The translations under genes and the position numbers were made by a program. Shown here one piece after another: positions 1,329 through 18,413 of a stretch of 64,000 bases of DNA. Origin of the DNA: Rhodothermia bacterium (lineage in GTDB: Bacteria; Bacteroidota; Rhodothermia; Balneolales; Balneolaceae); contig JAUICM010000006.1 of the NCBI GenBank assembly GCA_030427885.1, positions 124,001-188,000 on the forward strand, in the 5' to 3' direction. The notes beneath the pieces were generated by a model that was not told the origin of the DNA, ran no database searches, and was given only the letters and a program-made list of their open reading frames with translations. The first letter of the stretch is position 1, and every line of letters starts with the position of its first letter.

Positions 1329-4163
1329 TTAATTCCCTTCACCCACTTCCTTACTGATCAGGATCGGTTTACCAAATCCCAATTGTTCCAGACGATCCAT
1401 CTGCGTTTTTGCATCTCCAACAATCAGGTAGATCATCTTATCAGGATTCGCATACTTTTCTGCCAGTTCTGAGATCCGGTCGATGGTCATATCTTTAACG
1501 ATCTCTTGCTGATCTTTCACATAATCAGGCGACCAGCCATAATCACTGATATTCTCAAGCATATTCAATTTAGCACCTAAAGTCTCAAAGCGACGTGCAC
1601 TGCTTTTTAGAAGGAAGCTTTTGGTGGTTTCAAGATCGGTTTCGGTGAAAGTTTGCGGGTACTCTTCAAGTATCTCTTTTACAAGTGCGGCTGATTCGTA
1701 CGTCACATTGGTTCTCACCCCACTGCTGATGGTGAAAGGTCCGGGAATATCAGATCCCGAGAATCCGGAACCGATTCCGTAGGTGTAACCTTTACCTTCC
1801 CGTAGCTCCTGCGTGAAACGGGATGCGAACCCTCCGCCTCCAAGGATGTAATTCATGACGGTGGCGGGGTAGTAATCAGGGTCTGTTTCCGGCATAGACA
1901 TGTATCCGAACCGGATCACTGATTGCTTGGCACCGGGAACATCATAGAAATATACTTTGGAGGAAGTTGGAGCATTCGGAAAATTGAGTTCAGGGAATTG
2001 TATTACCTTTTCTTTCCACCTGTTCTCAATACCGGAGAGGGAAGCTATAACATCCGATCTGGTTACAGAGCCTACGACCAGATAGCTGGTTTCGGTTGGC
2101 GACAGATTATTCTGGTAATAGGATTTCAGATCGTCGATCGTGATTGATTCCACCGTCTCAGTAGTTCCAATAGTATTATAGGACAATATGTTATCCTCAC
2201 CGTACAAGAGCTTGTTGTAAGTATTGGTAGCAATACTGTTTGGATTGGCGCTCTGAGAAGCGATCTGACTCAAAACGCTTTGTCGGGCCAGATCAAATTC
2301 ATTTTCATCCCAGCGTGGTTCCAGCAACATTTCTTCAACAAGCGCCATCGTTTTATTATAGTTTCTTGCCAGGGTAGTTCCGGTAATACTGATACTCTCT
2401 CTGGCGGAACGAATATTGATAGATGCCCCTAATTCATCAATAGCTTCTTCGAGCTCCTGAGGAGTTTTATTGGCGGTTCCGCGGGTCATGACCTCAGCCA
2501 TCAAATTGGCGGTTCCCACTTTCGATGGTTCATCAAGAAGTAATCCACTTTTGATCTTAAGCTCAAACTGAACCAGCGGTAATTCGTTGTTTTCGATACC
2601 ATGGACTTCAATGCCGTTTGAGGTTTGTGCTTCCCAAACATTGGGTACTTTTACATCGGGGCTTTCACCATATGGAGGTTCCTGAGTCCTGTCGAAGCTG
2701 GTTGGGGTACGTTTGTATTCTGTTTCTTCAGGGAGTTCAAAAGACTCGCCTTCCGCATTCTGAACGATCTGTTCTTCAACCACTTCAGCAAGCTCGGAGC
2801 CAGTTAATGCCAGTTCTTTCTGTCCCTGTGGTACAAAACTGGTCGCGATGAAATTTTTTCCTTTGATGTATTTCCCATACACTCTCATGATATCCTCGCG
2901 GGTAACAGCCAGACTCTTTTTGATATCTTCGTTTATGTATCCGGGATCACCTGCAAAGATATTATACTGAGCCAGATTAAATGCCTTGCCGAGCACACTG
3001 GATAAACCATTATAGAAATTGGTTTCAATGCCAGCTTTGATCCGATCCAGATCAGCATCGGTAAATCCCTCTTCTTCAAAACGGGCAAAACCTTCATTTA
3101 CTGCAGACTCCACATCATCCAGATCCGTATTCGGGAAAGCGCGAACCAGTAGAGTGATCTCACCAGACAACTCTGAATTACTGCTGAACAAATTCACACT
3201 GGATGTGAGTTCTTTTTCATCAATAAGTACTTTGTTGAGCGGAGCTTTTTTTCCTGAAGCCAGAAGCTGGGCAAGGATATCAAGGGCATAGGAGTCAGGA
3301 TGGTAGGTATCTACTCCGGGCCATACCATTCTCAGTTCAGGAAGCCGGGCAAAGTTATCTTCGTAGTACAGTTTCTTGGTTTCGGTGACTACAGCAAGTT
3401 GATCGGGAAGGGGAGTGATTTCCTCACCACGCGGGATCTCATCAAAATATTTATGTACCCATTCTTTGGCCTGGTCAAAATCAAAATCACCGGCAATAAC
3501 CAAAGTCGCGTTATTTGGTACATACCATTTGCGGTAGAAATCTTTTACATCTTCCAGGGTTGCAGCCTGAAGGTCTTCCAGTGAACCGATCACCTGCCAG
3601 TTGTATGGATGGTCTTCCGGGTACAGGTTTTTATCTACCACATAATTGGCATGACCATAAGGCTGGTTGTCATAACTCTGGCGCTTTTCATTCTTAACCA
3701 CCTGCTTTTCTTTGGCAACCACAGCTTCGGTCACCGTGTTGATGAAGAATCCCACTTTATCGGCTTCCGCCCAGATCATTTTTTCGAGAGCATCATTAGG
3801 AACCGTCTGGAAATAATTGGTCCGGTCTCGGCTGGTGGAACCGTTGGCACCAGAACCTCCAATACGTGAACTCATTTTATCAAGACCACCTTTACCAAGA
3901 TTTTCAGATTCAAGGAAAAGCAGGTGTTCAAACAGGTGAGCAAAGCCGGTACGACCTTCAATCTCGCGGGCAGAACCTACATGGAATGTCAGGGCTACAG
4001 CCGTGACAGGATCAGATTCATCTTTATGAAGGATCACCTCGAGGCCGTTATCTAAAACAAACTTCTCGAAATTAACAGTGAAATCATCCTTTTTTTGATT
4101 TGTGCAGGATAGCAGTACCAACGCCATTGAAAGGCTTAGAAAAGCTTTGAATCGGGTATTCAT
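1329..4163 (-). CDS. M16 family zinc metalloprotease, lipoprotein
   Basis: A 944-residue, two-lobed M16 (pitrilysin-like) peptidase. A lipoprotein signal ends at Cys20 (LLSC). The N-terminal lobe has the inverted zinc motif HLFEH (His76, Glu79, His80) with the downstream Glu region KEKQVVKNEK at about 151-160 giving the third ligand. The C-terminal lobe (from about residue 510) has the Arg/Tyr-type GGGGFASRFTQELREGKGYTYG segment of the non-catalytic M16 half. Such periplasmic or outer-membrane-anchored enzymes degrade peptides, and some cleave secreted peptides. The gene is monocistronic: about 195 bp upstream separates it from the divergent propeller genes and a palindromic repeat lies downstream. 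Substrate unknown. Confidence 0.93.
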   Translation of the reverse strand: MNTRFKAFLSLSMALVLLSCTNQKKDDFTVNFEKFVLDNGLEVILHKDESDPVTAVALTFHVGSAREIEGRTGFAHLFEHLLFLESENLGKGGLDKMSSRIGGSGANGSTSRDRTNYFQTVPNDALEKMIWAEADKVGFFINTVTEAVVAKEKQVVKNEKRQSYDNQPYGHANYVVDKNLYPEDHPYNWQVIGSLEDLQAATLEDVKDFYRKWYVPNNATLVIAGDFDFDQAKEWVHKYFDEIPRGEEITPLPDQLAVVTETKKLYYEDNFARLPELRMVWPGVDTYHPDSYALDILAQLLASGKKAPLNKVLIDEKELTSSVNLFSSNSELSGEITLLVRAFPNTDLDDVESAVNEGFARFEEEGFTDADLDRIKAGIETNFYNGLSSVLGKAFNLAQYNIFAGDPGYINEDIKKSLAVTREDIMRVYGKYIKGKNFIATSFVPQGQKELALTGSELAEVVEEQIVQNAEGESFELPEETEYKRTPTSFDRTQEPPYGESPDVKVPNVWEAQTSNGIEVHGIENNELPLVQFELKIKSGLLLDEPSKVGTANLMAEVMTRGTANKTPQELEEAIDELGASINIRSARESISITGTTLARNYNKTMALVEEMLLEPRWDENEFDLARQSVLSQIASQSANPNSIATNTYNKLLYGEDNILSYNTIGTTETVESITIDDLKSYYQNNLSPTETSYLVVGSVTRSDVIASLSGIENRWKEKVIQFPELNFPNAPTSSKVYFYDVPGAKQSVIRFGYMSMPETDPDYYPATVMNYILGGGGFASRFTQELREGKGYTYGIGSGFSGSDIPGPFTISSGVRTNVTYESAALVKEILEEYPQTFTETDLETTKSFLLKSSARRFETLGAKLNMLENISDYGWSPDYVKDQQEIVKDMTIDRISELAEKYANPDKMIYLIVGDAKTQMDRLEQLGFGKPILISKEVGEGN

Positions 4164-4359: not shown

Positions 4360-5493
4360 ATGAATACACAGATCACTCTCCTTTTTTTAACTCTGGTTGT
4401 ACTTACAGGCTGTACTGAAAACAAAGCACAAAAGAAGAATGCAGCAACTGATTTCGATCCAGAAAAAATCACTGTTGAGATCGAGGTTATGGAGTTCGAG
4501 CCAACACCGGAAGGAGAACCGGCTTTCTATTCAGTGTCGGATTTAAGAGTGGATAATGAAAATAATATCTACCTGTTCGATCCACAGCTTATGAAGATCA
4601 AAGTGTTTAATTCTGAAGGTGAACAACTGGTTGAGTTTGGCAAAGAAGGTAAAGGTCCGGGTGAATATGAAAGACCCCGTTCCTTTTATCTTAATAAGAA
4701 GAATGGAGATTTAATGATCTTCGACAGAAATGCGGCACGCTTAACCCGATTCAATAAGGAGGGGGAAGTAAAAGAGCTGATACCAACCGAAGTAATTAAA
4801 GTGATGCCTAAATTCTTACGGGATGGGGACAGAAATATAGTTATAAACCCAAGTTTTGATAGTGATACTCTTGCGATGATAGCGGATGACTCATTCAATC
4901 CGATTTCTGAATTTTTGTCTACCAGTGAATACGGTGAAGGTTTGGAGAAAATTCAAAGAGCGATAAACATATCCTCCGGCAGTGCATTAGCTTATAACGA
5001 TCACTTCTATTTTGCCCCGGTGGTGTACTCAGGCGAGATCTATGATTATGTGTTCGATCCCGGTTTGAATAACTATTTACTGAACAGAAAGATAGTGAGT
5101 ACGCCGGTTGATCAGCCATTTGAGGTGCTATCAAATAACAGTAAACGACAAGCAAGTGTGCGTTTCTTCAGTCCGGAAGGGGAACTCTCAGTATTGTTTT
5201 TATCTGGAAGTAATGGTTTGTATAAATATGAAGATGATATCTTCCACTTCGTAGGGAGAGAAGAGGGAAACAAACGGATATTTGGGGTGGAATTGTTTGA
5301 TGAACAATGGAATTATATCGGATTTAAGGAGATCAGATCTATTGAACTTGATATCAATGATGAAGATGCTCCGCAACGAATATCTTTTGTAATAGAGGAT
5401 ATAGATCGGAATGGGATTTTCTATGGCCGGCAACGGAATGAATACGGAGACTGGCAGGTGATAAAAATGAATATTGATACTTCAAATCTGTAA
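4360..5493 (+). CDS. Six-bladed beta-propeller lipoprotein (propeller 1)
   Basis: A 377-residue lipoprotein with lipobox LTGC (Cys18). The rest is a repetitive beta-rich fold with blade-like units (VDNENNIYLFDPQLMKIKVFNSEG) and the family motif GKGPGEY at about 97-103, the hallmark of the Bacteroidota six-bladed beta-propeller (NHL-like, DUF5128/BF3164-type) proteins. No catalytic motif is visible, so a binding or scaffold role at the envelope is likely but inferred. It is the first of three tandem plus-strand propeller genes. Only 9 bp separate it from the next, so the two are probably co-transcribed. The gap of about 195 bp upstream is shared with the divergent M16 gene and should hold the promoter. 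Confidence 0.85.
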   Translation: MNTQITLLFLTLVVLTGCTENKAQKKNAATDFDPEKITVEIEVMEFEPTPEGEPAFYSVSDLRVDNENNIYLFDPQLMKIKVFNSEGEQLVEFGKEGKGPGEYERPRSFYLNKKNGDLMIFDRNAARLTRFNKEGEVKELIPTEVIKVMPKFLRDGDRNIVINPSFDSDTLAMIADDSFNPISEFLSTSEYGEGLEKIQRAINISSGSALAYNDHFYFAPVVYSGEIYDYVFDPGLNNYLLNRKIVSTPVDQPFEVLSNNSKRQASVRFFSPEGELSVLFLSGSNGLYKYEDDIFHFVGREEGNKRIFGVELFDEQWNYIGFKEIRSIELDINDEDAPQRISFVIEDIDRNGIFYGRQRNEYGDWQVIKMNIDTSNL

Positions 5494-5502
5494 ACTGCAT
5501 TA

Positions 5503-6765
5503 ATGCATAGATACTTTCTGTTAAATGTTCTGTTAGTCTTTCTTCTGATTCAGTGTTCCAAAGAACCAGAACCGGAAAATTTGGCTCCTGAAATACAAAA
5601 AGAAGAAACAAAACAATCAGAGTTACCGGAAGTGCTTGAACCAATATCCATTCTGGATGAAATTCCGGAGCATATTCAGAAAATCGAAAATGTGACCATT
5701 TTTCCCGGAGATACGGAACCTACTCATACCATAGAACTGATCTCCGAACAAACCTTTGGAAGTACAGAGGAGATCTACATAGCACATATACTAGGGGCTG
5801 AGGAAGATGATAATGGCAGAGTGGTTGTATGGGGCGCAGATACAAATTACGAACAGATCCTGAACGTATTTAATGCTGATGGAAGCTTTTATAAACAATT
5901 GGGAAGAAGGGGAAGGGGCCCGGGTGAATATGGGCCAGTGGTAGATTTATTGGTAAAATCCGGAAAAATATATGTAAGTGATCATACCAGTAAGCGTTTA
6001 AATGAATATTCTGTAAAAGATTATTCCATTTTACGTTCAATTCTGCTGGAGACCTGGGAGAGTAAAGATGATTTCAGGTTCGGTTATGCTGAACCACTAA
6101 GTGACGGTAATTATTTAGTTTATTTTTTGGACTCACCTTCTAAGTTTGGAAAGCTCGAGATCAGGATACAGGTAATGGATGATAAAGGCACTGCGATGCC
6201 TTTTGAGCCACTCGTTTTTCCAGCTGGAATAAGGATCAAAGTAGGGGAATCTTTACGGCCAACAATGCCGGTAAATTTTACGGGTTCCACCGAATTGGCA
6301 GTGTCAGATGAAGATGAACTTTATGTTATATGGACCAGAGAGTTTTTGATCAGGAAATACGATTCTGAGGGACGATATGTATCATCGATCTATTATCCCA
6401 TTCAGGGGGCACCTTTTGACCTTGATGTGTATGTAAATTCAGGACCATTCACTCCCAATGCCCGGCTCATAGAAAAAGGATTTTCTGAGATGGATGAGGA
6501 ATTTCCGGAAACGTTCCCGGTGGTCCAAAGAATAAAGGTGGATGATGAAAACAGGATATGGTTGGCGGTGCCCAGAGGTGAGCGACAAGATATCTTTGAA
6601 TGGTGGATTCTCGAAGAATCTGGTGAATTGCTGGCTAAACTAGTACGACCAAAATATCCACATATATATGATATCAGAAACGGGCATTTGTACAGCAAAC
6701 AAATAAATGAAGAAACTGATGAGGAGTATGTGGTTAAGTACCGGATAGAGTTGAGGGAGCTTTAG
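5503..6765 (+). CDS. Six-bladed beta-propeller lipoprotein (propeller 2)
   Basis: A 420-residue exported protein. The N-terminus is a signal peptide ending at Cys18 (LLIQC); Gln at -1 is unusual for a lipobox, but the Ser/Lys/Glu/Pro-rich linker that follows (about 19-60) is typical of lipoproteins. The propeller motif GRGPGEY is at about 137-143, preceded by a blade ending NVFNADGSFYKQLG. It is longer than its neighbours because of the acidic N-terminal linker. It sits 9 bp after propeller 1 and 54 bp before propeller 3; that second gap has a small hairpin. Divergent in sequence from propeller 1 outside the motif, so an old duplication. No function can be read beyond a likely binding surface. 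Confidence 0.83.
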   Translation: MHRYFLLNVLLVFLLIQCSKEPEPENLAPEIQKEETKQSELPEVLEPISILDEIPEHIQKIENVTIFPGDTEPTHTIELISEQTFGSTEEIYIAHILGAEEDDNGRVVVWGADTNYEQILNVFNADGSFYKQLGRRGRGPGEYGPVVDLLVKSGKIYVSDHTSKRLNEYSVKDYSILRSILLETWESKDDFRFGYAEPLSDGNYLVYFLDSPSKFGKLEIRIQVMDDKGTAMPFEPLVFPAGIRIKVGESLRPTMPVNFTGSTELAVSDEDELYVIWTREFLIRKYDSEGRYVSSIYYPIQGAPFDLDVYVNSGPFTPNARLIEKGFSEMDEEFPETFPVVQRIKVDDENRIWLAVPRGERQDIFEWWILEESGELLAKLVRPKYPHIYDIRNGHLYSKQINEETDEEYVVKYRIELREL

Positions 6766-6779
6766 CCACTATATTACTC

Positions 6780-6800
6780 CTCGTTCCTATGTGACGAGAT
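6780..6800. repeat. Short hairpin motif shared with the 10.85 kb repeat
   Basis: The gap between propellers 2 and 3 holds CTCGT-TCCTATGTG-ACGAG (5-bp stem). The 16 bases TCCTATGTGACGAGAT (6785-6800) recur with two changes as ACCTACGTGACGAGAT at 10846-10861, downstream of propeller 4. This looks like a remnant of the same dispersed palindromic repeat. It is followed by a run of A, not T, so it is not a convincing plus-strand terminator. Confidence 0.4.
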
Positions 6801-6819
6801 AAAAAAAATTCAAGCCTTA

Positions 6820-7971
6820 ATGTTTAAAAAAATCCACTATTTAGTTTTACTGATCCTGATTTTTGTAATTCCCTTCTGTGCGGAAAAAACCAGGGGTGTC
6901 TCAGGAAATGATGGGCCTTCTGTCAAAGAGTTGAACGAGTATCAGGTTCTGGAGGTCGATCAGGATCTGATACTCGGATTACCAGTACGTCTAAAGTTTA
7001 ACACAAACAAACGGGAACTATTCGTTCAGGATCTGGCAAACTGGAGTGTGATCAGTATCGACAGTACAGGAAAAATGGCAGGCAAATTTGGAAGGAGGGG
7101 CAGGGGACCTGGAGAGATTCAACGACTGGATGATTTCTTTTTTACAAATGAGCATCTTTATTTAGTGGATGGAGCCCAATTCCTGATCCATAAGTACAGC
7201 CTCGAAAACGGGGAACACCTCTCGTCTCTGAATTACGGTGATATACTGATGAAAATGGAGGGCCGGGAAAATAATCGTGCTTCATTAATACCAAAGCTTC
7301 CATTGATAGATAATAACAATCAGCCTTTTGTTACACTGAACGGGGAGGTACTTATCCCGTTCGGTTCGGGTGGAAAATATTTGTATCAGTTAACTGACTG
7401 GGAAGGAAATAAACTGGCGAATATTGCAGAGATGCCGCTTAACTGTAGTGCAACTGAAGAAGAAGTCAGGAAAGCTTTGAAAGAAAGAGTAGTACCGGCT
7501 TCGGATGAGTGCCTTACTTTTCCTGTACACGATCATTCCAATCCTGACGAATTGTATATAGTGTATAGCGCTGTTCCGAAAATAGAGAAGTACAGTTTAT
7601 CCGGAGAAAAACTGTGGACGAAATTGATCCCGAAAATGCCAGAGATGGATTCACTAATGATCGATCTGGAAGAAGTGGTAAGGAGCGATCCGGATAGGCC
7701 GGTTTCACATCTGACTGTCAGAAAGTACATTTCTGGACGGAGCGGAAACGAGGGAGATTTGTACCTTCTTACCTATAACAATCTCATCACTCCGGAAACT
7801 CCAGTGAGGCCTGTCTGGATACACCATTTTGATAAAAACGGGAAATTGATTGAGAGACTTAAAATTAAGTCAGAGCAAGACCTGAATTATTATCCCGGAA
7901 TAGATTTCGTTGAGAATAGAATGTATATGCCGGTATTCAGAGATATTGAGATTCGCAGTTATAGTTTTTGA
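6820..7971 (+). CDS. Six-bladed beta-propeller lipoprotein (propeller 3)
   Basis: A 383-residue protein with a hydrophobic signal ending at Cys20 (VIPFC), probably lipid-anchored though the lipobox is loose. The blade motif GRGPGEI is at about 94-100, preceded by VISIDSTGKMAGKFGR. Beta-rich repeats follow to the end (FDKNGKLIERLKI near the C-terminus). Two internal cysteines (PLNCSATEEE and ASDECLTF), about 30 residues apart, could form a disulfide. It ends the first run of propeller genes; about 270 bp of non-coding DNA follows before the AraC-type gene. Expected to sit in the periplasm or at the outer membrane. Ligand unknown. Confidence 0.83.
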   Translation: MFKKIHYLVLLILIFVIPFCAEKTRGVSGNDGPSVKELNEYQVLEVDQDLILGLPVRLKFNTNKRELFVQDLANWSVISIDSTGKMAGKFGRRGRGPGEIQRLDDFFFTNEHLYLVDGAQFLIHKYSLENGEHLSSLNYGDILMKMEGRENNRASLIPKLPLIDNNNQPFVTLNGEVLIPFGSGGKYLYQLTDWEGNKLANIAEMPLNCSATEEEVRKALKERVVPASDECLTFPVHDHSNPDELYIVYSAVPKIEKYSLSGEKLWTKLIPKMPEMDSLMIDLEEVVRSDPDRPVSHLTVRKYISGRSGNEGDLYLLTYNNLITPETPVRPVWIHHFDKNGKLIERLKIKSEQDLNYYPGIDFVENRMYMPVFRDIEIRSYSF

Positions 7972-8244
7972 TTCGAATCTAGTTCCATCGAATATCGATC
8001 CTTTGGTCGTTTAGAATGCGATGGATTAATGGACCGAATTTCAAGTGACCGATTTTGATCCAACATGCCGGAGGCTGATTTTTTAACTTAAATTTATATT
8101 TTATCCCTAAATAGAGATAAAACAGTAAATAAAATTTTTATCTATGAGGATTAATTAGTTAATTGGGCGAGCTTTAGAAAACAGGTTTTGGTAGAGAGGA
8201 GTGGTTAACAAAAAATAGTAACCACTAATACGCTTTAGGAAAAT
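7972..8244. promoter_or_regulatory. Upstream region of the AraC-type gene with two dyads
   Basis: AT-rich non-coding stretch with two inverted repeats: TTTTATC / GATAAAA (8099-8122, 10-nt spacer) and a perfect GTGGTTA / TAACCAC (8201-8207 and 8219-8225, 11-nt spacer). The second ends 19 bp before the ATG of the AraC-type gene, a plausible place for an autoregulatory operator or for a leader hairpin. No clear TAnnTTTG -7 box was found. Confidence 0.35.
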
Positions 8245-8577
8245 ATGAAAGAGATTGAGCTGGCATTGGATGTGTTGGTGGAGAATATCACCTCCATACA
8301 TACGGTGGCGGAATGGGCGGAAGAAATGGGCTACGAGTCCGAAAAATATTTTACCCGCAAAATAAGGGCCCATTATAAAAAGAGTCCCTATAAGATCATT
8401 GTGGAAAAAAGGGTGCAAAGAGTTAAGGAAGAGCTAAAGAATTCCCCCGAAGAAATTCTTTTTTCTATCGCCCTTGATCTCGGGTTTTGTGATAACAATG
8501 CTTTGTACAAGTTTATTAAACGCCATACGGGTAAAACACACAGCCAGTTGAAATGGGAGAGTGAAATGGGAGAGTGA
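8245..8577 (+). CDS. Stand-alone AraC-type helix-turn-helix DNA-binding protein
   Basis: A 110-residue protein that is almost only an AraC/XylS DNA-binding domain. The first HTH is VAEWAEEMGYESEKYFTRKI; the long linker helix follows (SPYKIIVEKRVQRVKEEL), then the second HTH, FSIALDLGFCDNNALYKFIK, and the family end motif HTGKTHSQLK. There is no ligand-binding or receiver domain, as in many small Bacteroidota AraC-type regulators. The last seven residues (WESEMGE) and the stop are encoded by the first two copies of a 13-bp tandem repeat, so the natural C-terminus has been overwritten by repeat sequence. It lies between propeller 3 and the MauE-like gene and is the obvious local regulator, but its targets are inferred. 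Confidence 0.82.
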   Translation: MKEIELALDVLVENITSIHTVAEWAEEMGYESEKYFTRKIRAHYKKSPYKIIVEKRVQRVKEELKNSPEEILFSIALDLGFCDNNALYKFIKRHTGKTHSQLKWESEMGE

Positions 8578-8653
8578 AATGGGAGAGTGAAATGGGAGAG
8601 TGAAATGGGAGAGTGAAATGGGAGAGTGAAATGGGAGAGTGAAATGGGAGAGT
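8550..8653 (+). repeat. Eight perfect 13-bp tandem repeats
   Basis: The unit GAAATGGGAGAGT occurs eight times head to tail with no mismatch, then GAAAATTTTT. The first two copies lie inside the 3' end of the AraC-type gene. Thirteen is not a multiple of three, so each copy shifts frame, and a TGA arises across the unit junction. Each unit holds ATG GGA GAG TGA (a Met-Gly-Glu mini-ORF) with a GGGAG Shine-Dalgarno-like run 6-7 nt before the next ATG. Perfect identity points to recent slippage expansion. Copy number would change the spacing to the next gene but not the AraC product. Confidence 0.97.
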
Positions 8654-8738
8654 GAAAATTTTTCTCTTTTAACTTTTAAAAAATAAATTTATTAAAAATA
8701 TATCACATATATGTATGTATCTGTAAAAAAATGTTTTG

Positions 8739-9065
8739 ATGAACCAGTTAGGAGAATGGAAACCTCAAACGGAGAATTTAAAGTTAATGTTTAGAGATTT
8801 AGTCAAATGGACGCTTTTACTTTCGCTTATTAGTGCAGCAATTATAAAAATAGTAAATCCCCCTTTGTTTCTTCCTTATTTTAGTGAAATACCGATAACC
8901 TCGGAGCTTTCTATATACTTTTCTTTGATTTTCTTTAGTGGATTTCAAATTCTGATTACAATTCTCGCTTTAATTCCAAGATTCTCGAATAAAGTTTATA
9001 AACCAATATTTATGACATTCACAGTATTAAGTGTGTTAAGCCTGAATGCACTTTTTTTGGGGTAG
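8739..9065 (+). CDS. MauE/DoxX-like membrane protein, N-terminal part before a frameshift
   Basis: This frame gives about 108 residues (ATG 8739; a TTG lies just before at 8736). It has three hydrophobic segments: VKWTLLLSLISAAIIKIV (followed by NPPLFLPYFSEIP), SIYFSLIFFSGFQILITILAL, and FMTFTVLSVLSLNALFLG. The helix-KxxNP-helix layout matches the first three helices of MauE/DoxX-family membrane proteins, which partner with quinone- or thiol-redox proteins. The frame stops at TAG 9063, right after a C-T7-G4 run, and the missing fourth helix is found in the -1 frame directly downstream. The protein is therefore short only because of this shift. It lies between the 13-bp repeats and the Cys-rich exported protein. 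Assignment rests on topology and pattern, not on a search. Confidence 0.6.
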   Translation: MNQLGEWKPQTENLKLMFRDLVKWTLLLSLISAAIIKIVNPPLFLPYFSEIPITSELSIYFSLIFFSGFQILITILALIPRFSNKVYKPIFMTFTVLSVLSLNALFLG

Positions 9066-9202
9066 AAGTGAAAACAGAGTGTTTAGGATGGGTTACACAG
9101 GAGCAAAACTTTCAAATTCTATCATTAAAGAATATTGGTATAACATTATGTGCTTTATTTCTAATGTATAGCAATAAAAATCCAATCAATAACAAAACAT
9201 AA
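9056..9202 (+). pseudogene. C-terminal part of the MauE/DoxX-like protein in the -1 frame
   Basis: Read in the -1 frame, the T7G4 run continues as FFGVEVKTECLGWVTQEQ and then a fourth hydrophobic helix, ILSLKNIGITLCALFLMY, ending at TAA 9200-9202, 3 bp before the GTG of the next frame. The ECLGW site falls where MauE/DoxX proteins carry a Cys-containing motif before the last helix. Joining both parts gives about 153 residues, the usual family size. The frame-0 codons CTT TTT TTG GGG TAG contain a T TTT TTG heptamer, a legal -1 slippery site (HIV-1 uses U UUU UUA). The break may be programmed frameshifting, homopolymer phase variation, a true inactivation or a sequencing error; the sequence alone cannot decide. 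Confidence 0.6.
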
Positions 9203-9214
9203 AAAGTGAGAATC

Positions 9215-9490
9215 ATGAATAAAAGAATACGCAAAATGGGAACTTTTTTTTGTGCGATGCTTATAGTTTCTTTTTTTAGCATTGGCTCCGTACAGGAAAT
9301 ATCCCCAAATACAAACGAAATCAGTTTAACAACAGAGTTGAACGAATCTAGTTCATTGCTAATTGTCGACCCTCCTGAGTGTGTTTGCGCAGAAAGGAAG
9401 GGATGGTTATTTGGAATGTGTAAAGGGGCTACAACTCGGGTATGTGAAGGAGATACTGAGTGTAATGAAACCTGCGGTACTCCTGAATAA
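9215..9490 (+). CDS. Small exported protein with six cysteines
   Basis: A 91-residue protein if it starts at ATG 9215 (an in-frame GTG lies at 9206). The N-terminus has basic MNKRIRK, then a hydrophobic core (FFCAMLIVSFFSIGSV), a Sec signal peptide without a lipobox. The mature part has a Ser/Thr/Asn-rich spacer and a compact C-terminal domain with six Cys (PPECVC, GMCKG, RVCEG, ECNETCGTPE), an even number suited to three disulfides. No family recognised with certainty; it recalls the small Cys-bearing NVEALA-type exported proteins found next to propeller genes in Bacteroidota, but no NVEALA motif is seen. A weak hairpin terminator follows, so it may be the last gene of the AraC/MauE-like transcript. 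Confidence 0.7.
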   Translation: MNKRIRKMGTFFCAMLIVSFFSIGSVQEISPNTNEISLTTELNESSSLLIVDPPECVCAERKGWLFGMCKGATTRVCEGDTECNETCGTPE

Positions 9491-9495
9491 ATTAT

Positions 9496-9531
9496 AAAAA
9501 GGTGATCTTTAATCTAAGGGTCACTTTTTTT
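9496..9531 (+). terminator. Probable Rho-independent terminator after the Cys-rich gene
   Basis: AAAAGGTGA pairs with TCACTTTTTTT around an intervening loop (a GTGA/TCAC core extended by A-T pairs, one bulge), ending in a run of seven T. It lies 6 bp after the stop of the Cys-rich gene and 20 bp before propeller 4, so propeller 4 may have its own promoter or be read by partial read-through. Confidence 0.5.
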
Positions 9532-9551
9532 AAAAATTTGAGTAAAAGAGT

Positions 9552-10583
9552 ATGTATTTAAAAAAGGTTGTATTCCTTTCTGTTATTTCTTTGTTCTCTA
9601 ATAATTTCTCCTTTGCACAGCTAGATGGGCTGATCTATAATCCTTATGATCTTTGGATTGTTGACGCTGATACAGTATTAGTAAATGATATTGCTGATAA
9701 GCAGAATACACTTAAGTTATTCGATCTAAAGGATGAAGAATTAATTGCATCAGTAAGAAGCGGAAGAGGTCCGGGTGAGGTAAGTTCAATTGCTTATAAA
9801 AGAAGTACTTTATATTCAAATGGAGATATATTTATCTGGGATTCAGGACGTAAAAGGATGACCCGTTATACTTCTGAACTAGAATATAAAACAGATGTTC
9901 GTGGAGGTAAATTTCTTGGAAGTATATTTCAGGCTGCTTTGATCAACGACAGTACTTTACTTACGGTGGGAGTTGGGGAAGGGTTTTTTAAGGTATGGAG
10001 AATCAAAAATAATAGGGTTACTGAAAAATCTCTTTTGTGGAGCATTAGCGAAGGAGAGTATGAGGAATTATCGCCACTCATTAATTTCACCCTACTTCAA
10101 ACGCTATTTTTCGATAACTTTAATGGAATTTTATATATAAGCTTCGAATTTTCCTCAATGGTAATAGGAATTGAGGAAACTGGAATTGTATTTATAAATC
10201 AGGAGCCGGATAACATTCCTCTTCCCCCACCTGATGAGGAATCAGAAAGAAGCGGGCGTTATAGTTTGCCTGTTATGGGGAAGCATCCGGAGGGAGCACG
10301 TGATGTATCGGCAGGAGGTGATTTTGTATATGTACTGTTAAACGGCGAAAAAATCTCAAGAATGCAACAGTGGAGATATCTTGTGAATTTCGAAGCCTTG
10401 ATTGAGAAAGTATATCATGCAGAAAGGTTGCTAAAATACGATAGGTTTACAGGGGAATTTATAGGGGAGATAAATCTACCAATCCCGGCGAGGCAGGCCA
10501 AAGTTCAGGGGGATACAGTTTATTTATTGAACACGCTTGGCGATGAACCCATCATCCGTAAATATAAGTTGGACGAACTGTAG
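9552..10583 (+). CDS. Six-bladed beta-propeller exported protein (propeller 4)
   Basis: A 343-residue protein with a Sec signal peptide (cleavage likely after NNFSFA, before QLD). Unlike propellers 1-3 it has no Cys lipobox, so it is probably soluble in the periplasm or secreted. The hallmark GRGPGEV is at about 71-77, earlier than in its neighbours because the N-terminal linker is absent. Blade-like repeats follow (NGDIFIWDSGRKRMTRYTSE; LLKYDRFTGEFIGEI near the end). It follows the Cys-rich gene after a terminator-like hairpin and is followed by the palindrome-rich gap. It probably shares a role with the three upstream lipoproteins. Ligand unknown. Confidence 0.82.
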   Translation: MYLKKVVFLSVISLFSNNFSFAQLDGLIYNPYDLWIVDADTVLVNDIADKQNTLKLFDLKDEELIASVRSGRGPGEVSSIAYKRSTLYSNGDIFIWDSGRKRMTRYTSELEYKTDVRGGKFLGSIFQAALINDSTLLTVGVGEGFFKVWRIKNNRVTEKSLLWSISEGEYEELSPLINFTLLQTLFFDNFNGILYISFEFSSMVIGIEETGIVFINQEPDNIPLPPPDEESERSGRYSLPVMGKHPEGARDVSAGGDFVYVLLNGEKISRMQQWRYLVNFEALIEKVYHAERLLKYDRFTGEFIGEINLPIPARQAKVQGDTVYLLNTLGDEPIIRKYKLDEL

Positions 10584-11132: not shown

Positions 11133-14100
11133 TTGCTTCTTCGGAAACCTATAGCTTCGGTCATCCTGGTTCTGGCGGTTCTCATCTTTGGTGGGATCAC
11201 GCTTTCGCGGCTCTCTATTGAGCTGTTACCGGATGTTACTGAACCGACTTTATTAGTGACCACCAATTACACTGGCGCCCCGGCTATGGATGTGGAGTAC
11301 CGGATCAATGAGCCTTTGGAGAGGTATCTGGGATCTGTTCGGGGAGTAAGGAGCATAAAAGGATTGGCTCGGCAAGGACAAAGCCTCATCTTTCTCAGCT
11401 TTGACTGGGGAACGGATATGGATCTGGCGTTCCTGAATGTTCGGGAGAAGCTGGATCAGGTCAGACCTATGCTTCCTGATCAGGCCGGACGTCCGCAACT
11501 AATTTATTCCTCGGCTTCAGATGAACCCATTGCGACACTGGCACTGACTTTAAAAAATGTACCCGAAGAAAGTTTCCGGAACAGGCTGGAGTTGAAGCGC
11601 TGGACGGAACAGGTGTTTTCACGCCGACTCGAACAGCAGGAAGGAATAGCACAGGCTTTATTGGTCGGAGCCGTAGAGCCGGAAGTTCAGATCAAATTTG
11701 ACCCCAAGCTGATCGACCGTTTTGGACTTACACTCAGTCAGGTCGAACGCGTCGTACAGGAAGCGAATTTATTTTCCACTACCGGTGAACTGCGGGATGG
11801 ATGGTATCGTTATGCTCTGAAGATCCAGAGCCGGATTGAGTCCATCGAAGATATTAAACGAATACCGGTGATCTCTCTGGCAAACGGACGTGTGATCAGG
11901 CTGGATGAGATCGCTGATATTGACATCGGGGAAGCTGATCCGACTTCCTTCGCTCTGCTGGATGATCAGGAAGTGTTGAATGTGCTGGTTAAGAAGGAAT
12001 ATGGTTCTAATACAGTAACCGTTTTTGAGACTTTAGGGAAGGTATTGGACGAAGTAGAGGAGCAGAATCCGGATATCAATATTGAAGTGATCAGCGAAGA
12101 TGCCAGCTACATCGAGAATTCGGTATTTAATTTGCTTCAAACTCTGATCATTGGGGGAATACTGGCATTCATCGTACTATTCCTTTTTCTGGACGATATC
12201 CGAAGCCCGTTTACCATCGGCGTTTCAATTCCGGTAAGTATCTTCCTCACTTTTGTGGTGATGTACTTATTCAATATTCAGCTGAATATCATTTCTCTCA
12301 GCGGACTTACTCTGGGGATCGGTTTATTACTGGATAATTCGATCGTGGTACTGGAGAACATAAACCGTTACCGTCAGCAGGGACTGGACCGGTACGAAGC
12401 GGCAGCCAAAGGCACTAAAGAAATAGCCTTGGCAGTATCTGCTTCTACGTTTACTACCATCTCAGTATTCCTTCCGCTTATTTTTCTGGGAGGATTTGAA
12501 GGAGCTTTTTTCAGGGATCTGGCGGCTACGTTATCAATCAGTTTGCTTTCATCGCTGTTGGTTGCCCTGGTGATCCTTCCTGTATTTGTGGCCAACATCA
12601 GCAGTTCCAGGAGTTCAAAGATACTGAGTAAAGTTTCGAAAGGATTAGATAAGATCATCAGCAGTTATGAGTCCGGCCTGTCGAAGATCATCAAGAAGCC
12701 GGTTCCCATTCTGTTATCCGCACTGGCTTTAGTGGCACTCTCATTCTGGATCTTTATGCTGGTCCCGAAATCAACGCTACCTGAAAGTGAACCGGAGCGA
12801 ATCGAATATGTGGTAACCATGCCGGGAAATACAGCCTTGCGTTCTGCAAAGCAGGCTTCCATCACCATGACTAATTTTATTGAACGGGAAACCGGTATCA
12901 GCGACATCCTTTCGATCGGAGGCTATACCGATAATATCAGTCCGAAGTCTATCCAGAACGAAGGGCTTAACAAATTCAGGATTTCGGTACCTGTAACCGG
13001 CGTCGATGAGATAACAAAAGTACGATCAGTCTTTAGAGGATTGGCTCAAACGTATTCCTCATGGTCATTTGAGGATCAGGATCAGTCCGGTTTTGGAAAT
13101 ACAGTAACTGGTACCACGGAAGAACCAGTACAACTTAGTATAGTAGGCACAGATCGTAAGGTGAGTAAGAGAGTAGGAACTGCCCTGCAGAAATATATGT
13201 CTGCCAGCTTCGGGGATATGCAACTCACAGAAAAGTATCCTCAGACCGTGGATGTGTACCAGATCAAATTCAAACCGAAGGAATTACTAGCATTCGGTAT
13301 TTCAGAAGGAGAGGTGATCCGTTACCTCGAATCTTTGACACGCGGAAGTTTCGTTACAGACTGGAACCGTCAGGACGAGCAGATCGGCATTCGCTTGTAT
13401 GGCGGTCAGACTGCATTTGCCGATCCTACCCAGATCAAGCTGAACATTAAGGATAAGATCATTCCACTGAGCCATCTCGCAGTTGTTGAAGAAGTGAAAG
13501 AAGCTGAACAACTGGAGCGGTCCGAGCAGTCCGCGATCCTGACCTACAATACCAACTTCTCTTCGGCCGACTGGTGGTGGAACTCCGGCGAAATAGAGGA
13601 CAACATTCAGGACTTTATGCAGCAAACAGGCTATGAGATAAGGACAGGCGGTTCAGCATTACAGATGATCGGACTGTTGAAAGAGCTGGGTTTGCTTCTC
13701 GGAATCAGTGTGATCTTGATCTACCTGATCCTGGCCATCCAGTACGAAAACCTGAAATATCCTCTGATCATCATTTTGGCGATTCCCTTCGCATGGATCG
13801 GATCTGTTTTTGCTCTTTATGTATTCGGGGTGAGCCTGAATGCATTGTCTTTTATGGGAGTCTTGGTCCTAACCGGTATTGCAGTAAACGACTCCATCCT
13901 GAAAGTTGATTTTATGAGAAGATATTATGATGAAACCGGAGATCTGGACGAAGCGATCAGTCAGGCTGGAATAAACCGGTTCCGTCCGGTTGTGATGACC
14001 AGTATTACCACTATTTTAGGATTGATCCCGATGTTGCTTCCTTTCGGGGATGGATATGTATTGCGTCAATCCCTGGCAATTGCCCTGATAGGAGGTATGG

Positions 14101-14174
14101 TTACCAGTACGATCCTGACCCTGTATCTGATCCCGCTTATTTTCAGGTTAATAACCCCAAAAGAACGAACATAA
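11133..14174 (+). CDS. RND efflux transporter permease (first of two)
   Basis: About 1013 residues with the classic RND layout: TM1 (ASVILVLAVLIFGGITLSRL) followed by the porter motif LPDVTEPTLLV, a large periplasmic loop, TM2-6 with LSGLTLGIGLLLDNSIVVLEN (the TM4 Asp-Asn pair of the proton relay), a second loop from about 545, and TM8-12 (LGISVILIYLILAIQYE; MGVLVLTGIAVNDSILKV). It belongs to the AcrB/CzcA superfamily; substrate not predictable. The start is TTG 11133; no in-frame ATG precedes it before the stop at 11115, and the usual first residues are present, so TTG is likely real. The adaptor gene follows after 11 bp and a second permease after that. Confidence 0.92.
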   Translation: MLLRKPIASVILVLAVLIFGGITLSRLSIELLPDVTEPTLLVTTNYTGAPAMDVEYRINEPLERYLGSVRGVRSIKGLARQGQSLIFLSFDWGTDMDLAFLNVREKLDQVRPMLPDQAGRPQLIYSSASDEPIATLALTLKNVPEESFRNRLELKRWTEQVFSRRLEQQEGIAQALLVGAVEPEVQIKFDPKLIDRFGLTLSQVERVVQEANLFSTTGELRDGWYRYALKIQSRIESIEDIKRIPVISLANGRVIRLDEIADIDIGEADPTSFALLDDQEVLNVLVKKEYGSNTVTVFETLGKVLDEVEEQNPDINIEVISEDASYIENSVFNLLQTLIIGGILAFIVLFLFLDDIRSPFTIGVSIPVSIFLTFVVMYLFNIQLNIISLSGLTLGIGLLLDNSIVVLENINRYRQQGLDRYEAAAKGTKEIALAVSASTFTTISVFLPLIFLGGFEGAFFRDLAATLSISLLSSLLVALVILPVFVANISSSRSSKILSKVSKGLDKIISSYESGLSKIIKKPVPILLSALALVALSFWIFMLVPKSTLPESEPERIEYVVTMPGNTALRSAKQASITMTNFIERETGISDILSIGGYTDNISPKSIQNEGLNKFRISVPVTGVDEITKVRSVFRGLAQTYSSWSFEDQDQSGFGNTVTGTTEEPVQLSIVGTDRKVSKRVGTALQKYMSASFGDMQLTEKYPQTVDVYQIKFKPKELLAFGISEGEVIRYLESLTRGSFVTDWNRQDEQIGIRLYGGQTAFADPTQIKLNIKDKIIPLSHLAVVEEVKEAEQLERSEQSAILTYNTNFSSADWWWNSGEIEDNIQDFMQQTGYEIRTGGSALQMIGLLKELGLLLGISVILIYLILAIQYENLKYPLIIILAIPFAWIGSVFALYVFGVSLNALSFMGVLVLTGIAVNDSILKVDFMRRYYDETGDLDEAISQAGINRFRPVVMTSITTILGLIPMLLPFGDGYVLRQSLAIALIGGMVTSTILTLYLIPLIFRLITPKERT

Positions 14175-14185
14175 CAGTAATAACT

Positions 14186-15262: not shown

Positions 15263-15275
15263 GATCCGGGATGTT

Positions 15276-18200
15276 TTGAAAGAACTTCTTTCCAGAAAAT
15301 ATCTGATCTCTTTTTTCTACATCATTGTATGTATTGCCGGAGTTATAACCTGGAGGAATATTCATATTGAAAATACTCCGGAATTAAACCTGCCTTCGAT
15401 GACCGTAAATTATTCCTGGGGAAGTACTGTTCCTGAGATCATGGAGCAGGAGATCACACGAAAGGTGGAAAGCGCGGCAAGTAATTTAAGGGATGTAACT
15501 GAGATCAATTCTATTACTCAGGAAGGTCGCAGCTCTGTTACTATTAAGTTTAATAAAAATGCCCCGGTTGATTTCAGATCGCTTGAACTCAGGGAATACC
15601 TGAATCTGCTGGAAGATGACCTTCCCTCGGAGGTATCGCCGGTTTCAATAACACGTTCAGTACCCGAAGAACTGGAAGATCAGCAGACATTCATGGTGTA
15701 TACCCTGAGCGGTGAATATGAGCCACGAAAACTGCTGGACTATGTTCGCCAAACCATTAAGCCACAGCTATTGGGCTTAGAGGGATTATCAGAAGTAAAA
15801 GATCAGGGAGTGGATGACCCGGCGCTGATGATCGAGTTCGACCGGTTTAAGCTGGAGAAATACAATTTATCTCCACGAACTTTGATGATGCAGGTGAGAG
15901 AGCGGCTCAACTGGAGAAGCTCAGGGTATACCGAGAATGGTGGTTCACGATATAGTATGGTAATACCTCCCCAGTACTCGAGTACAACAGATATCGGAAA
16001 TATGAAAATAGCTTTGCCCGGTGCACTGAAGCAGATTAATCTTTCTGAAATAGCCAATGTGAAAGTGACGGATTTTCCTGCTAAATCGAAACGCAGGATA
16101 AACGGAAGTCCGGCTCTTACTATTGAATTTGTGAAGGAGAGTGGAGCGGATGCCATGACTCTGGCTCGTGATATCATCAACACGATGGAAGAGATCAGGA
16201 GTACCCTTCCCGAAGGCATGAAACTTCGTCTTCAGGTCGATTCCACTGAGATACTCCGCGACCAGTTCGATCAGCTGGCATTACAGGCGATGATAAGTGC
16301 CGTATTAGTATTTCTTGTTGTTTTTGTTTTCATACGAAAACTGAGAGCTCCTTTTGTGATTGCCGGAAGTGTGCTGTTTTCCATATTGATGAGTTTGATC
16401 ACGCTATACCTGTTTAACTATACCCTGAATGTGATCACTCTGGCAGGACTTACCATTGCATTCGGTATGCTCATTGATAATGCTGTAGTTGTCTTTGAAC
16501 AGGTAAATCCGGGCTTGCCTTCAGATCGGGAAGAGAGATTAGAACATGTACGAAAAGAGCTTCCAAAATCTGTGGTCCCGGTACTTGGAAGTACATTTAC
16601 CACAGTTGGTATTTTCCTGCCACTGTTGTTCGCGGTGGAGGAATTAAGGCTGTTTTTAATGCCGCTGGCCGTAGCTTTAACGATTACCCTGATCTGTTCG
16701 GTGATCATAGCTTTTACGTGGATTCCATATTCATTGATTTGGTTATCGCCAACAGGTAATAAGGATTCAGAGAAGAAAAGATCGAGGAAGAAATGGTTCA
16801 GACCGCGTACAATTCTGAAACTATTGGTTTGGAGGAGAAAACTACGATGGGTTCTCTTACTGGGTGTGATAGCAGCGGTGGGCTTACCTCTGTTTCTGAT
16901 CGAGGAACCCTTATGGGAGGAAGAAACGTGGTGGCCGGAATTTACCCGTGTCTATTTTGATAACCGGGATGTCATTGACCCATGGATCGGAGGCATAACC
17001 TACCGTTTTGTGAATGACACCTATTTTGGCAATCCCTGGCGAAGAAATAATCAGGAGTTTATCAGTGTGAATATTTATTCCCCACAAGGCACGCCACTTT
17101 CAGAAATTGATAAAATCGTTGCAAGCTATGAGAAGATCGCAAAACCTTATGAACATGCCTTCAGCTATTACGAAGCGCGGATGTCAGAATACTATGGCGC
17201 CAATATTCGTTTTGCGGTAGACCCTGACTTCAATTTTAAGAGGGATCCCTATATGTTTTATGGTGAAGCACAGTTTCTGGCAGCGCGAACCGGAAACGTT
17301 GCGATATCGGTTCAGGGACTTAATATTCCGGGTATCAGTACAGGATTTGGAGGGAGTTCCTCTTCCTATTCGATCAGGCTTTCCGGTTATTCGTATGATG
17401 AACTCTACGAACTGGCAAGGGAGATCGAACGTCGTTTGGTGAAGAACCGGAGGGTCAGAGAAGTGGATGTAAACTCAACTTCTTTTTATTCCCGGACCGA
17501 TTTTCATCAATATGTACTGGAGCTGGATAATGAAAAAATACTTTCTCGTGGCCTGAACAGAGCAGAATTGATACAAGGCCTGAGTCTGGACCTAAATCCT
17601 CAGAACAGCTTTGGTAAGGTAGAATTTGGTGGACAGGAAATGTATCTGATGGCTAGGAATGAAGCAGATGATTTTTATGAAGAAGACCTGATGGAGAATA
17701 TCAGGGAAACCAATACTTCCAGTTTTGATCTCGCTTCATTCGGAACAATTAAAAAAGAGAAAGCCCTTACCGAGATACGTCGTCGGGATCAATCTTATTT
17801 CAGGACTGTGACACTGGATTTTTTGGGTAACTACCGAATGGGAAGAGACTTCATTGAAAAAACGCTGGAAACTGTTCCGGTTCCGGTTGGTGCAAAGATC
17901 GATTTTGGAAGTTATTCCTTCAATTTCGGGGATGAAGAGCAAAGCAAAAATCTTTGGCTTATTGCATTACTCAGCATACTGAGTGTCTGGATGATCGTTT
18001 CAGCTTTACTCGAAAGCTGGTCTGGTCCTTTGTTCGTTATTCTTGCGATTCCCTTTTGTGGACTGGGAATTATGGTTGGAACGCTGGGTAATGATCTGGC
18101 CTTCGATCGTGGCGCTATCGCTGGTGCATTACTGGGTATCGGGGTGGTGGTAAATAATGCGATCTTGTTAACTCATCAGAAACAGCTGGAATACAGTAAA

Positions 18201-18413
18201 GGGATCAGGGGATTAAGGTGCTGGTATTATGTGTTCAAAAAGAAGATGAGAACGATCATAATAACCACCACTACCACCGTATTTGGATTGCTACCGATGC
18301 TGTTAATAGGAACCAATGAATTCTGGGAGAGTCTGTCCGTTATTGTAGTTTGGGGACTGATGTTTAGTACGGTGCTGGTGATCCTGTTTGCCGGGCTTTG
18401 GAGTAAGAAATGA
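15276..18413 (+). CDS. RND efflux transporter permease (second, divergent)
   Basis: A 1045-residue RND permease with TM1 (LISFFYIIVCIAGVITW), the early porter segment (IENTPELNLPSMTVNYSW), TM4 with LTIAFGMLIDNAVVVFEQV (Asp-Asn pair), and a C-terminal membrane half (IALLSILSVWMIVSALLE; LGIGVVVNNAILLTHQKQ), where TM10 has Asn-Asn. The second periplasmic loop is unusual: after a basic linker (KKRSRKKWFRPR) there is a long Tyr/Trp/Phe-rich stretch (LWEEETWWPEFTRVYFDNRD) and a Gly/Ser-rich GFGGSSSSYS, quite unlike the first permease. The start is TTG 15276. Its stop overlaps the start of the next lipoprotein gene (ATGA). It may form a mixed pump with the first permease through the single adaptor. 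Confidence 0.9.
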   Translation: MKELLSRKYLISFFYIIVCIAGVITWRNIHIENTPELNLPSMTVNYSWGSTVPEIMEQEITRKVESAASNLRDVTEINSITQEGRSSVTIKFNKNAPVDFRSLELREYLNLLEDDLPSEVSPVSITRSVPEELEDQQTFMVYTLSGEYEPRKLLDYVRQTIKPQLLGLEGLSEVKDQGVDDPALMIEFDRFKLEKYNLSPRTLMMQVRERLNWRSSGYTENGGSRYSMVIPPQYSSTTDIGNMKIALPGALKQINLSEIANVKVTDFPAKSKRRINGSPALTIEFVKESGADAMTLARDIINTMEEIRSTLPEGMKLRLQVDSTEILRDQFDQLALQAMISAVLVFLVVFVFIRKLRAPFVIAGSVLFSILMSLITLYLFNYTLNVITLAGLTIAFGMLIDNAVVVFEQVNPGLPSDREERLEHVRKELPKSVVPVLGSTFTTVGIFLPLLFAVEELRLFLMPLAVALTITLICSVIIAFTWIPYSLIWLSPTGNKDSEKKRSRKKWFRPRTILKLLVWRRKLRWVLLLGVIAAVGLPLFLIEEPLWEEETWWPEFTRVYFDNRDVIDPWIGGITYRFVNDTYFGNPWRRNNQEFISVNIYSPQGTPLSEIDKIVASYEKIAKPYEHAFSYYEARMSEYYGANIRFAVDPDFNFKRDPYMFYGEAQFLAARTGNVAISVQGLNIPGISTGFGGSSSSYSIRLSGYSYDELYELAREIERRLVKNRRVREVDVNSTSFYSRTDFHQYVLELDNEKILSRGLNRAELIQGLSLDLNPQNSFGKVEFGGQEMYLMARNEADDFYEEDLMENIRETNTSSFDLASFGTIKKEKALTEIRRRDQSYFRTVTLDFLGNYRMGRDFIEKTLETVPVPVGAKIDFGSYSFNFGDEEQSKNLWLIALLSILSVWMIVSALLESWSGPLFVILAIPFCGLGIMVGTLGNDLAFDRGAIAGALLGIGVVVNNAILLTHQKQLEYSKGIRGLRCWYYVFKKKMRTIIITTTTTVFGLLPMLLIGTNEFWESLSVIVVWGLMFSTVLVILFAGLWSKK

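What the first reader, a model, noticed from the sequence alone, without database searches (positions are those of the whole stretch)
4360..10583. Candidate new envelope module: four beta-propellers, AraC-type domain, MauE-like protein and six-Cys peptide
Seen: three tandem propeller lipoproteins, a stand-alone AraC-type HTH, a MauE/DoxX-like membrane protein, a small exported six-Cys protein and a fourth, non-lipidated propeller, all on one strand within 6.2 kb. Known: MauE/DoxX proteins work in quinone/thiol redox reactions of exported proteins, and propellers bind partners. Inference: the MauE-like protein may supply disulfide redox state to the Cys-rich peptide, which the surface propellers then display or bind. 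I know of no described system with these parts.
Basis: partly seen in the sequence, partly recalled or inferred. Interest (0 to 1): 0.75.

Follow-up and report, generated by a model that had tools for sequence, protein, structure and literature searches.

The report
MauE–cysteine-peptide–propeller cassette beside an efflux pump
Next to an efflux pump, this bacterium carries a small gene cassette (a membrane redox-type protein, an exported cysteine-rich mini-protein and a six-bladed propeller protein, with a gene regulator) that recurs across a whole bacterial phylum, sometimes with two of the parts fused, and for which I found no described function.

Summary
Three corrections apply. (1) The MauE-like gene is broken in this assembly by a one-base frameshift (T7G4 run, 9052-9062), and its nearest intact relative keeps only one Cys of the family's CxC motif. 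(2) The conserved unit is MauE + exported Cys peptide + non-lipidated propeller, usually with a stand-alone AraC HTH; the three upstream propellers are optional neighbours, and only P1 has a good lipobox. (3) The missed partner is the RND1-MFP-RND2 pump at 11133-18413. Related cassettes sit at the orthologous pump in many Balneolales genomes, some adding a dedicated signal peptidase or a DsbA-like protein. In distant Bacteroidota, DUF6520 Cys peptides lie beside MauE in 12/12 loci; in 11/12 a propeller is fused to it or adjacent. Best reading: a disulfide-peptide maturation module in which a MauE-type oxidoreductase folds a Sec-exported peptide that the propeller binds. The mechanism is inferred, and weakest for this copy. 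A methylamine-dehydrogenase-like quinone subunit is disfavoured because the peptide Trp is not conserved. I found no paper describing the module; the nearest precedent is mauE/mauD candidate peptide clusters in Streptomyces.

The parts
8245..8577 (+). Stand-alone AraC-type HTH (110 aa), probable cassette regulator
   Evidence: PF12833 E 3e-16; similar short AraC HTHs head cassettes in L077, L079, L097, L098, L102, L105, L115, L162, L163
8549..8657 (+). Perfect 13-bp tandem array, 8.4 copies, spanning the AraC stop codon
8739..9065 (+). MauE-like 4-TM protein, N-terminal part (TM1-3)
   Evidence: 57% identical to the intact 142-aa EAC52 protein; PF07291 only 11 bits for this fragment, 30.7 bits for the EAC52 relative
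9052..9062 (+). T7G4 run: site of the single-base frameshift
   Evidence: DNA alignment with EAC52
9068..9202 (+). MauE-like protein, C-terminal part (single Cys and TM4) in the shifted frame
   Evidence: 47% identical to EAC52 residues 96-139
9206..9490 (+). Sec-exported peptide, 94 aa, six Cys in the predicted mature part (CVCAERKGWLFGMCKGATTRVCEGDTECNETCG); ATG start possible at 9215
   Evidence: relatives in EAC52, HLUCCA01 and G505; core dN/dS about 0.13 against EAC52
9552..10583 (+). P4: non-lipidated exported six-bladed propeller partner
   Evidence: AF2 pLDDT 90.3; NHL fold Z 18.8; 41-62% identical relatives
4360..5493 (+). P1 propeller lipoprotein (optional neighbour)
   Evidence: PF17170 E 1e-9; LTGC lipobox
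5503..6765 (+). P2 propeller (optional neighbour)
   Evidence: PF17170 E 1e-10; weak lipobox LIQC
6820..7971 (+). P3 propeller (optional neighbour)
   Evidence: PF17170 E 4e-7; non-canonical IPFC
11133..14174 (+). RND1 efflux transporter
   Evidence: 20 of 24 RND1 loci have a propeller within 6 kb upstream; follows P4 in L019/L113, L098, L111
14186..15262 (+). MFP, membrane-fusion (adaptor) protein
   Evidence: relatives in 48 of 96 genomes; same order with RND1 and RND2
15276..18413 (+). RND2 efflux transporter
   Evidence: conserved order RND1-MFP-RND2

Best explanation
It is a cassette for making and holding an exported disulfide-rich mini-protein. An AraC-type regulator switches it on. The peptide is exported by Sec. 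A MauE-type four-helix membrane protein, related in kind to DsbB/VKOR thiol:quinone enzymes and helped in some relatives by a DsbA-like protein, oxidises or isomerises its cysteines in the periplasm. The partner six-bladed propeller binds the folded peptide as scaffold or carrier, and the neighbouring RND pump serves the same process (peptide export, or removal of what the peptide acts on). Shown by sequence: the parts, their order, their recurrence and their fusion. Inferred: regulation by the AraC protein, disulfide transfer, peptide-propeller binding, and the pump's role.
For: Trio in EAC52. Peptide + P4 + pump in HLUCCA01. Window-type six-Cys peptide + P4 + 4-TM protein in a distant family (L110). 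Cassettes AraC - MauE (CGC[FL]G) - 4-Cys peptide - propeller - S26 signal peptidase at the orthologous pump. An S26 protein accompanies all 7 cassettes whose peptide has an [AV]xA-GPC site (6 by motif; L096 read) and was not seen in P4-type cassettes. DsbA-like CPYC protein plus CGCFG MauE in L163. DUF6520 peptides in distant Bacteroidota have MauE adjacent in 12/12 and a propeller adjacent or fused in 11/12; the fusion models as TM bundle plus propeller. A parallel route pairs GG-leader Cys peptides with a C39-type exporter, VKOR-thioredoxin proteins and propellers. The peptide core is under purifying selection (dN/dS about 0.13, 82% identical against 62% for P4).
Against: The window MauE gene is frameshifted. 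P4-type MauE proteins mostly keep only the first Cys of CxC, so a classical two-Cys relay is not possible there. P4 lacks Cys. Four P4 genes stand without a peptide, three of them in a phenylacetate (paa) operon. Several P4-type '4-TM' proteins miss or barely reach the MauE model. The pump is absent beside the EAC52 trio. P4 and the fused propellers are not demonstrably homologous beyond the fold.
Confidence: 0.5

Rival explanations
1. The peptide is a secreted bacteriocin or signal peptide; MauE (with S26 in some) matures it, the propeller gives immunity or a docking site, and the RND pump exports it.
For: Peptide types differ between cassettes while the partners persist. RND pump adjacency. 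Parallel GG-leader/C39-exporter clusters with propellers, a bacteriocin-like export route. S26 tied to [AV]xA-GPC peptides. decRiPPter reports mauE/mauD clusters with Cys-rich precursors (PMC7794033).
Against: The window-type core is more conserved than its partners (82% vs 62%, dN/dS 0.13), unlike a diversifying toxin. No known bacteriocin family reached its cut-off. The EAC52 trio has no pump beside it.
Confidence: 0.3
2. A mini methylamine-dehydrogenase-like redox protein: propeller = large subunit, Cys peptide = small subunit carrying a Trp-derived quinone, MauE (with DsbA/MauD-like) = maturation.
For: Same parts list as mauB/mauA/mauE/mauD (L163); MADH heavy chains appear among propeller matches.
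Against: Trp is absent from the mature peptides of L110, L032 and L112. P4 is NHL-like, and MADH is only one of many generic matches. No MauG- or radical-SAM-type modifier was seen beside the trios I read.
Confidence: 0.06
3. Chance neighbours in a propeller-rich hot spot beside the pump.
For: 13 PF17170 genes in this genome and arrays of propellers at pump loci. Generic MauE genes mostly lie elsewhere. P4 can stand alone.
Against: 10/20 vs 9/181 control; 12/12 and 11/12 in DUF6520 loci and nine natural fusions; trio intact at another locus in EAC52.
Confidence: 0.05

Closest known systems
mau cluster (MauE/MauD maturation of methylamine dehydrogenase)
   Same: MauE-type membrane protein, small disulfide-type exported protein, beta-propeller partner; DsbA-like partner in L163
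   Different: No conserved Trp for TTQ, NHL-type six-bladed propeller, no MauG seen, window MauE type lacks the second Cys; AraC and RND pump instead
decRiPPter mauE/mauD candidate RiPP clusters in Streptomyces (PMC7794033)
   Same: MauE (and MauD) homologues beside a Cys-rich precursor (at least 8 Cys)
   Different: Actinobacterial prediction; the passages read mention no propeller, AraC-pump context or fusion; precursors larger in Cys number
DUF6520 (PF20130)
   Same: Exported, mostly 4-Cys peptide beside MauE and a propeller, or a MauE-propeller fusion
   Different: Window peptide does not match the model; best cassette peptide only E 0.19
Bacteroidota six-bladed propellers (PF17170 DUF5128, PF15869 TolB_like)
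   Same: P1-P3 are members of PF17170 by score
   Different: P4 reaches neither curated cut-off (TolB_like 15.5 of 29.2 bits)
SOQ1 lumenal domain (thioredoxin plus NHL propeller, PDB 7djj)
   Same: Precedent, from own knowledge, for pairing a redox domain with an NHL propeller; P4 matches at Z 14.9, rmsd 3.9, 258 residues
   Different: Different architecture and organism; shared fold only

Membership tests
PF07291 MauE | Score above curated cut-off (27 bits) | tested here: not met
   Window fragment 11 bits; intact EAC52 relative 30.7 bits, met
PF07291 MauE | CxC motif between TM3 and TM4 | tested here: not met
   Window and EAC52 have one Cys (ECLG / DCLR); CxC kept in S26-type cassettes, L097, L163 and the fusions
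Methylamine dehydrogenase | Conserved Trp residues for tryptophan tryptophylquinone in the small subunit | tested here: not met
   No invariant Trp in 12 peptides; absent in the mature part of L110, L032, L112
Methylamine dehydrogenase | MADH-type propeller large subunit | tested here: inconclusive
   MADH heavy chains at Foldseek rank 22 with TM 0.46, among many generic propellers; best matches are NHL domains
Methylamine dehydrogenase | MauD/DsbA-like partner in the cluster | tested here: not met
   None seen in the window cassette; present in L163
decRiPPter mauE candidate RiPP | MauE homologue beside a precursor with at least 8 Cys | tested here: not met
   Window peptide has 7 Cys, 6 in the mature part (criterion)
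DUF6520 | PF20130 score | tested here: not met
   Window peptide has no Pfam hit
NVEALA peptides | PF14055 score | tested here: not met
   No hit for the window peptide; no hit over cut-off in 198 genomes of the phylum
PF17170 six-bladed propeller | Score above cut-off 22.9 | tested here: met
   P1 38.4, P2 41.7, P3 29.9 bits; P4 has no PF17170 hit
Disulfide-forming system (DsbB/VKOR-like function) | Thiol oxidation linked to quinone | not testable with these tools
   Needs biochemistry

The most novel reading that the evidence does not exclude
A Bacteroidota-wide, undescribed protein-maturation system in which a dedicated MauE-type membrane oxidoreductase and a six-bladed propeller (sometimes one fused polypeptide) form a private folding and holding station for a Sec-exported cysteine mini-protein. 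Two molecular routes (MauE with Sec; VKOR-thioredoxin with GG-leader/C39 export) would have converged on the same propeller-plus-disulfide-peptide output.
Probability: 0.35. Interest if true: 0.85.

Novelty: new variant of a known kind. Interest (0 to 1): 0.66.

Why it matters
MauE/DoxX and DUF5128/TolB-like propellers are common uncharacterised annotations in Bacteroidota, and DUF6520 has no paper in the library searched. A conserved trio with natural fusions assigns them a shared process and gives a testable substrate (the peptide) for a MauE protein outside methylamine metabolism. It may also point to a family of secreted disulfide peptides in free-living Bacteroidota.

Tried and rejected
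NVEALA peptide link (recalled from memory): no support. Tryptophylquinone subunit: Trp not conserved. Weak peptide hits L011-L017 and G437: neighbours do not fit (G437 also has stops inside). Weak MauE hits L007 and L008: unrelated ORFs. The own-genome PF07291 hit on C8 is an unrelated DoxX-like gene. Homology of P4 to the fused propellers by profile: only one blade, probability 5%. Promoter pattern TTTG-N17-23-TAnnTTTG: no hit in the cassette. Rfam: nothing. Literature: nothing describing the module. Whether the frameshift is real could not be resolved: no other genome of the genus turned up among the relatives searched.
Full report
What is there. The window (G000:C12:124001-188000) holds, on the + strand, propellers P1-P3 (4360-7971), a 110-aa AraC-type HTH (8245-8577), a MauE-like gene, an exported Cys peptide (9206-9490), propeller P4 (9552-10583) and then RND1, MFP and RND2 (11133-18413). 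The MauE-like reading frame is broken: it stops at 9065, while TM4 and the single conserved Cys continue in another frame to 9202. Alignment with the intact 142-aa relative in the MAG Balneola sp. EAC52 shows one base missing in the T7G4 run. The shifted part is still 47% identical to its relative, so the lesion is recent, a sequencing error, or bypassed; I cannot tell which. A perfect 13-bp array of 8.4 copies covers the AraC stop.

Is the grouping real? Searching 98 relatives with the peptide alone found two others. One (EAC52) has MauE-peptide-P4 in the same order but inserted in a phenylacetate operon. The other (HLUCCA01) has peptide-P4 followed by RND1-MFP-RND2. Searching 245 genomes of the class with a P4 model gave 27 places in 18 genomes. 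I tabulated 20 of these genes, three of which (window, EAC52, HLUCCA01) had seeded the model. At 10 of the 20 an automated rule found an exported small protein with at least three Cys ending within 600 bp upstream; the same rule fired for 9 of 181 other large genes in these and neighbouring loci. One of the ten, L110 from a distant family, carries a peptide of the window's own six-Cys type (CTCAKRV...CDGPTTRVCTGGSGCEDVCGG) with P4 and a 4-TM protein. L103, L112 and L098 have peptides that the rule missed. Four P4 genes (L097 first copy, L099, L100, L101) have no peptide; three of them lie in a paa operon, the same operon in which the EAC52 trio sits.

The pump. Using the MFP as seed and reading upstream, 20 of 24 RND1 loci have a propeller within 6 kb; one of the four others is cut by the contig end (L095), and two have propellers between RND1 and MFP (L091, L096). 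Five of these 24 loci were added because they hold P4 or a cassette, so the figure is not fully independent of P4. Many pump loci carry a second cassette type: AraC HTH - MauE with CGC[FL]G - 85-99-aa peptide with four Cys after an [AV]xA-GPC site - non-lipidated propeller - S26 signal peptidase - pump (L077, L079, L085, L086, L115, L162). By motif scan six such cassettes have the S26 protein; the seventh (L096) has one read by eye. P4-type cassettes that I read lack it. The site lies about 20-28 residues beyond the hydrophobic core, which suggests, without proving, a dedicated propeptide cleavage. L163 has AraC - six-Cys peptide - propeller - DsbA-like (CPYC; PF13462 5e-24) - MauE (1e-24) - RND2.

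Outside the order. DUF6520 peptides, sampled by their own model in 148 genomes of the phylum, gave 12 true peptide loci. All 12 have a MauE (PCSCGG type) beside the peptide; in nine this MauE continues through a fifth TM into a propeller, in two a separate protein that looks like a propeller lies next to it, and one has none. Pfam confirms MauE in fusions at E 5e-31 but names no propeller family there; the AlphaFold model of one fusion (pLDDT 81.5) is a helical bundle (2-174) plus a propeller that matches solved propellers. Several of these loci also start with an AraC-type regulator; the one I tested matches HTH_18.

The parts. P4 models as a six-bladed NHL-type propeller (pLDDT 90.3; best Z 18.8 to Brat), a fold without a specific function. 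The peptide core is 82% identical to EAC52's, dN/dS about 0.13, more conserved than P4 at 62%. In a 19-sequence MauE alignment the first Cys of CxC is nearly invariant; the second is lost in most P4-type proteins but present in L097. Several P4-type 4-TM proteins are at or below the detection limit of the MauE model, so calling them MauE-like rests on position, topology and the Cys.

Mechanism. MauE is reported in the literature as speculated to form disulfides in the MADH small subunit (PMC7794033, citing van der Palen 1997). A MauE protein next to a DsbA-like protein and a Cys peptide, and the parallel propeller clusters with GG-leader Cys peptides, a C39-type exporter and VKOR-thioredoxin proteins, make oxidative folding of the peptide the most likely task, with the propeller as its binding partner. 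For the window copy itself this is weakest: one Cys and a frameshift. Whether the folded peptide is secreted, is a signal or bacteriocin, or stays as a subunit is open; strong conservation argues against a fast-diversifying toxin, the pump and the C39 parallel argue for export.

Known or new. The closest published idea is decRiPPter's mauE/mauD candidate RiPP families in Streptomyces with precursors of at least 8 Cys. No held paper mentions DUF6520, and searches for the trio found nothing relevant. Subscription journals are mostly not held, so prior description cannot be excluded. I therefore file it as a new variant of a known kind, with a sizeable chance that it is a distinct system.

Noticed in passing
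8549-8657: Perfect 13-bp tandem array (8.4 copies) across the AraC stop codon; the period is not a multiple of three, so copy-number changes alter the spacing to MauE.
   Followed up: no
9052-9062: Single-base frameshift in a T7 run inside the MauE-like gene: pseudogene, slippage site or assembly error.
   Followed up: partly
L078 11702-13899, L162 1478-5058, L163 1251-6737, L166 10136-17218, L088 17712-17921: Clusters of GG-leader Cys-rich peptides with C39-type ABC exporter, HlyD-like protein, VKOR-thioredoxin proteins and propeller lipoproteins in Balneolaceae: bacteriocin-like systems for which I found no description.
   Followed up: partly
L171-L179: Natural MauE-TM5-propeller fusion proteins (about 500 aa) beside DUF6520 peptides and, in most, an AraC-type regulator and an S9-type peptidase.
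   Followed up: partly
L097 6448-7530, L100 5905-6930, L101 6028-7083; compare L018 5225-7029: Orphan P4 propellers within a phenylacetate (paa) operon, the same operon in which the EAC52 trio sits.
   Followed up: no
L077, L079, L085, L086, L096, L115, L162: An S26 signal-peptidase-like gene accompanies every cassette whose peptide has an [AV]xA-GPC site far beyond the signal core.
   Followed up: partly
L134-L157 (many): Other full-length MauE genes in this class lie mainly beside a purF-like amidophosphoribosyltransferase or beside an SDR-like and an enolase-superfamily-like gene; function unknown.
   Followed up: no
1329-4163; L080, L085, L086: An M16 peptidase gene flanks the cassette-pump region in several genomes; in others a Cys-rich 196-aa protein and an RpoN-like gene lie between.
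   Followed up: no
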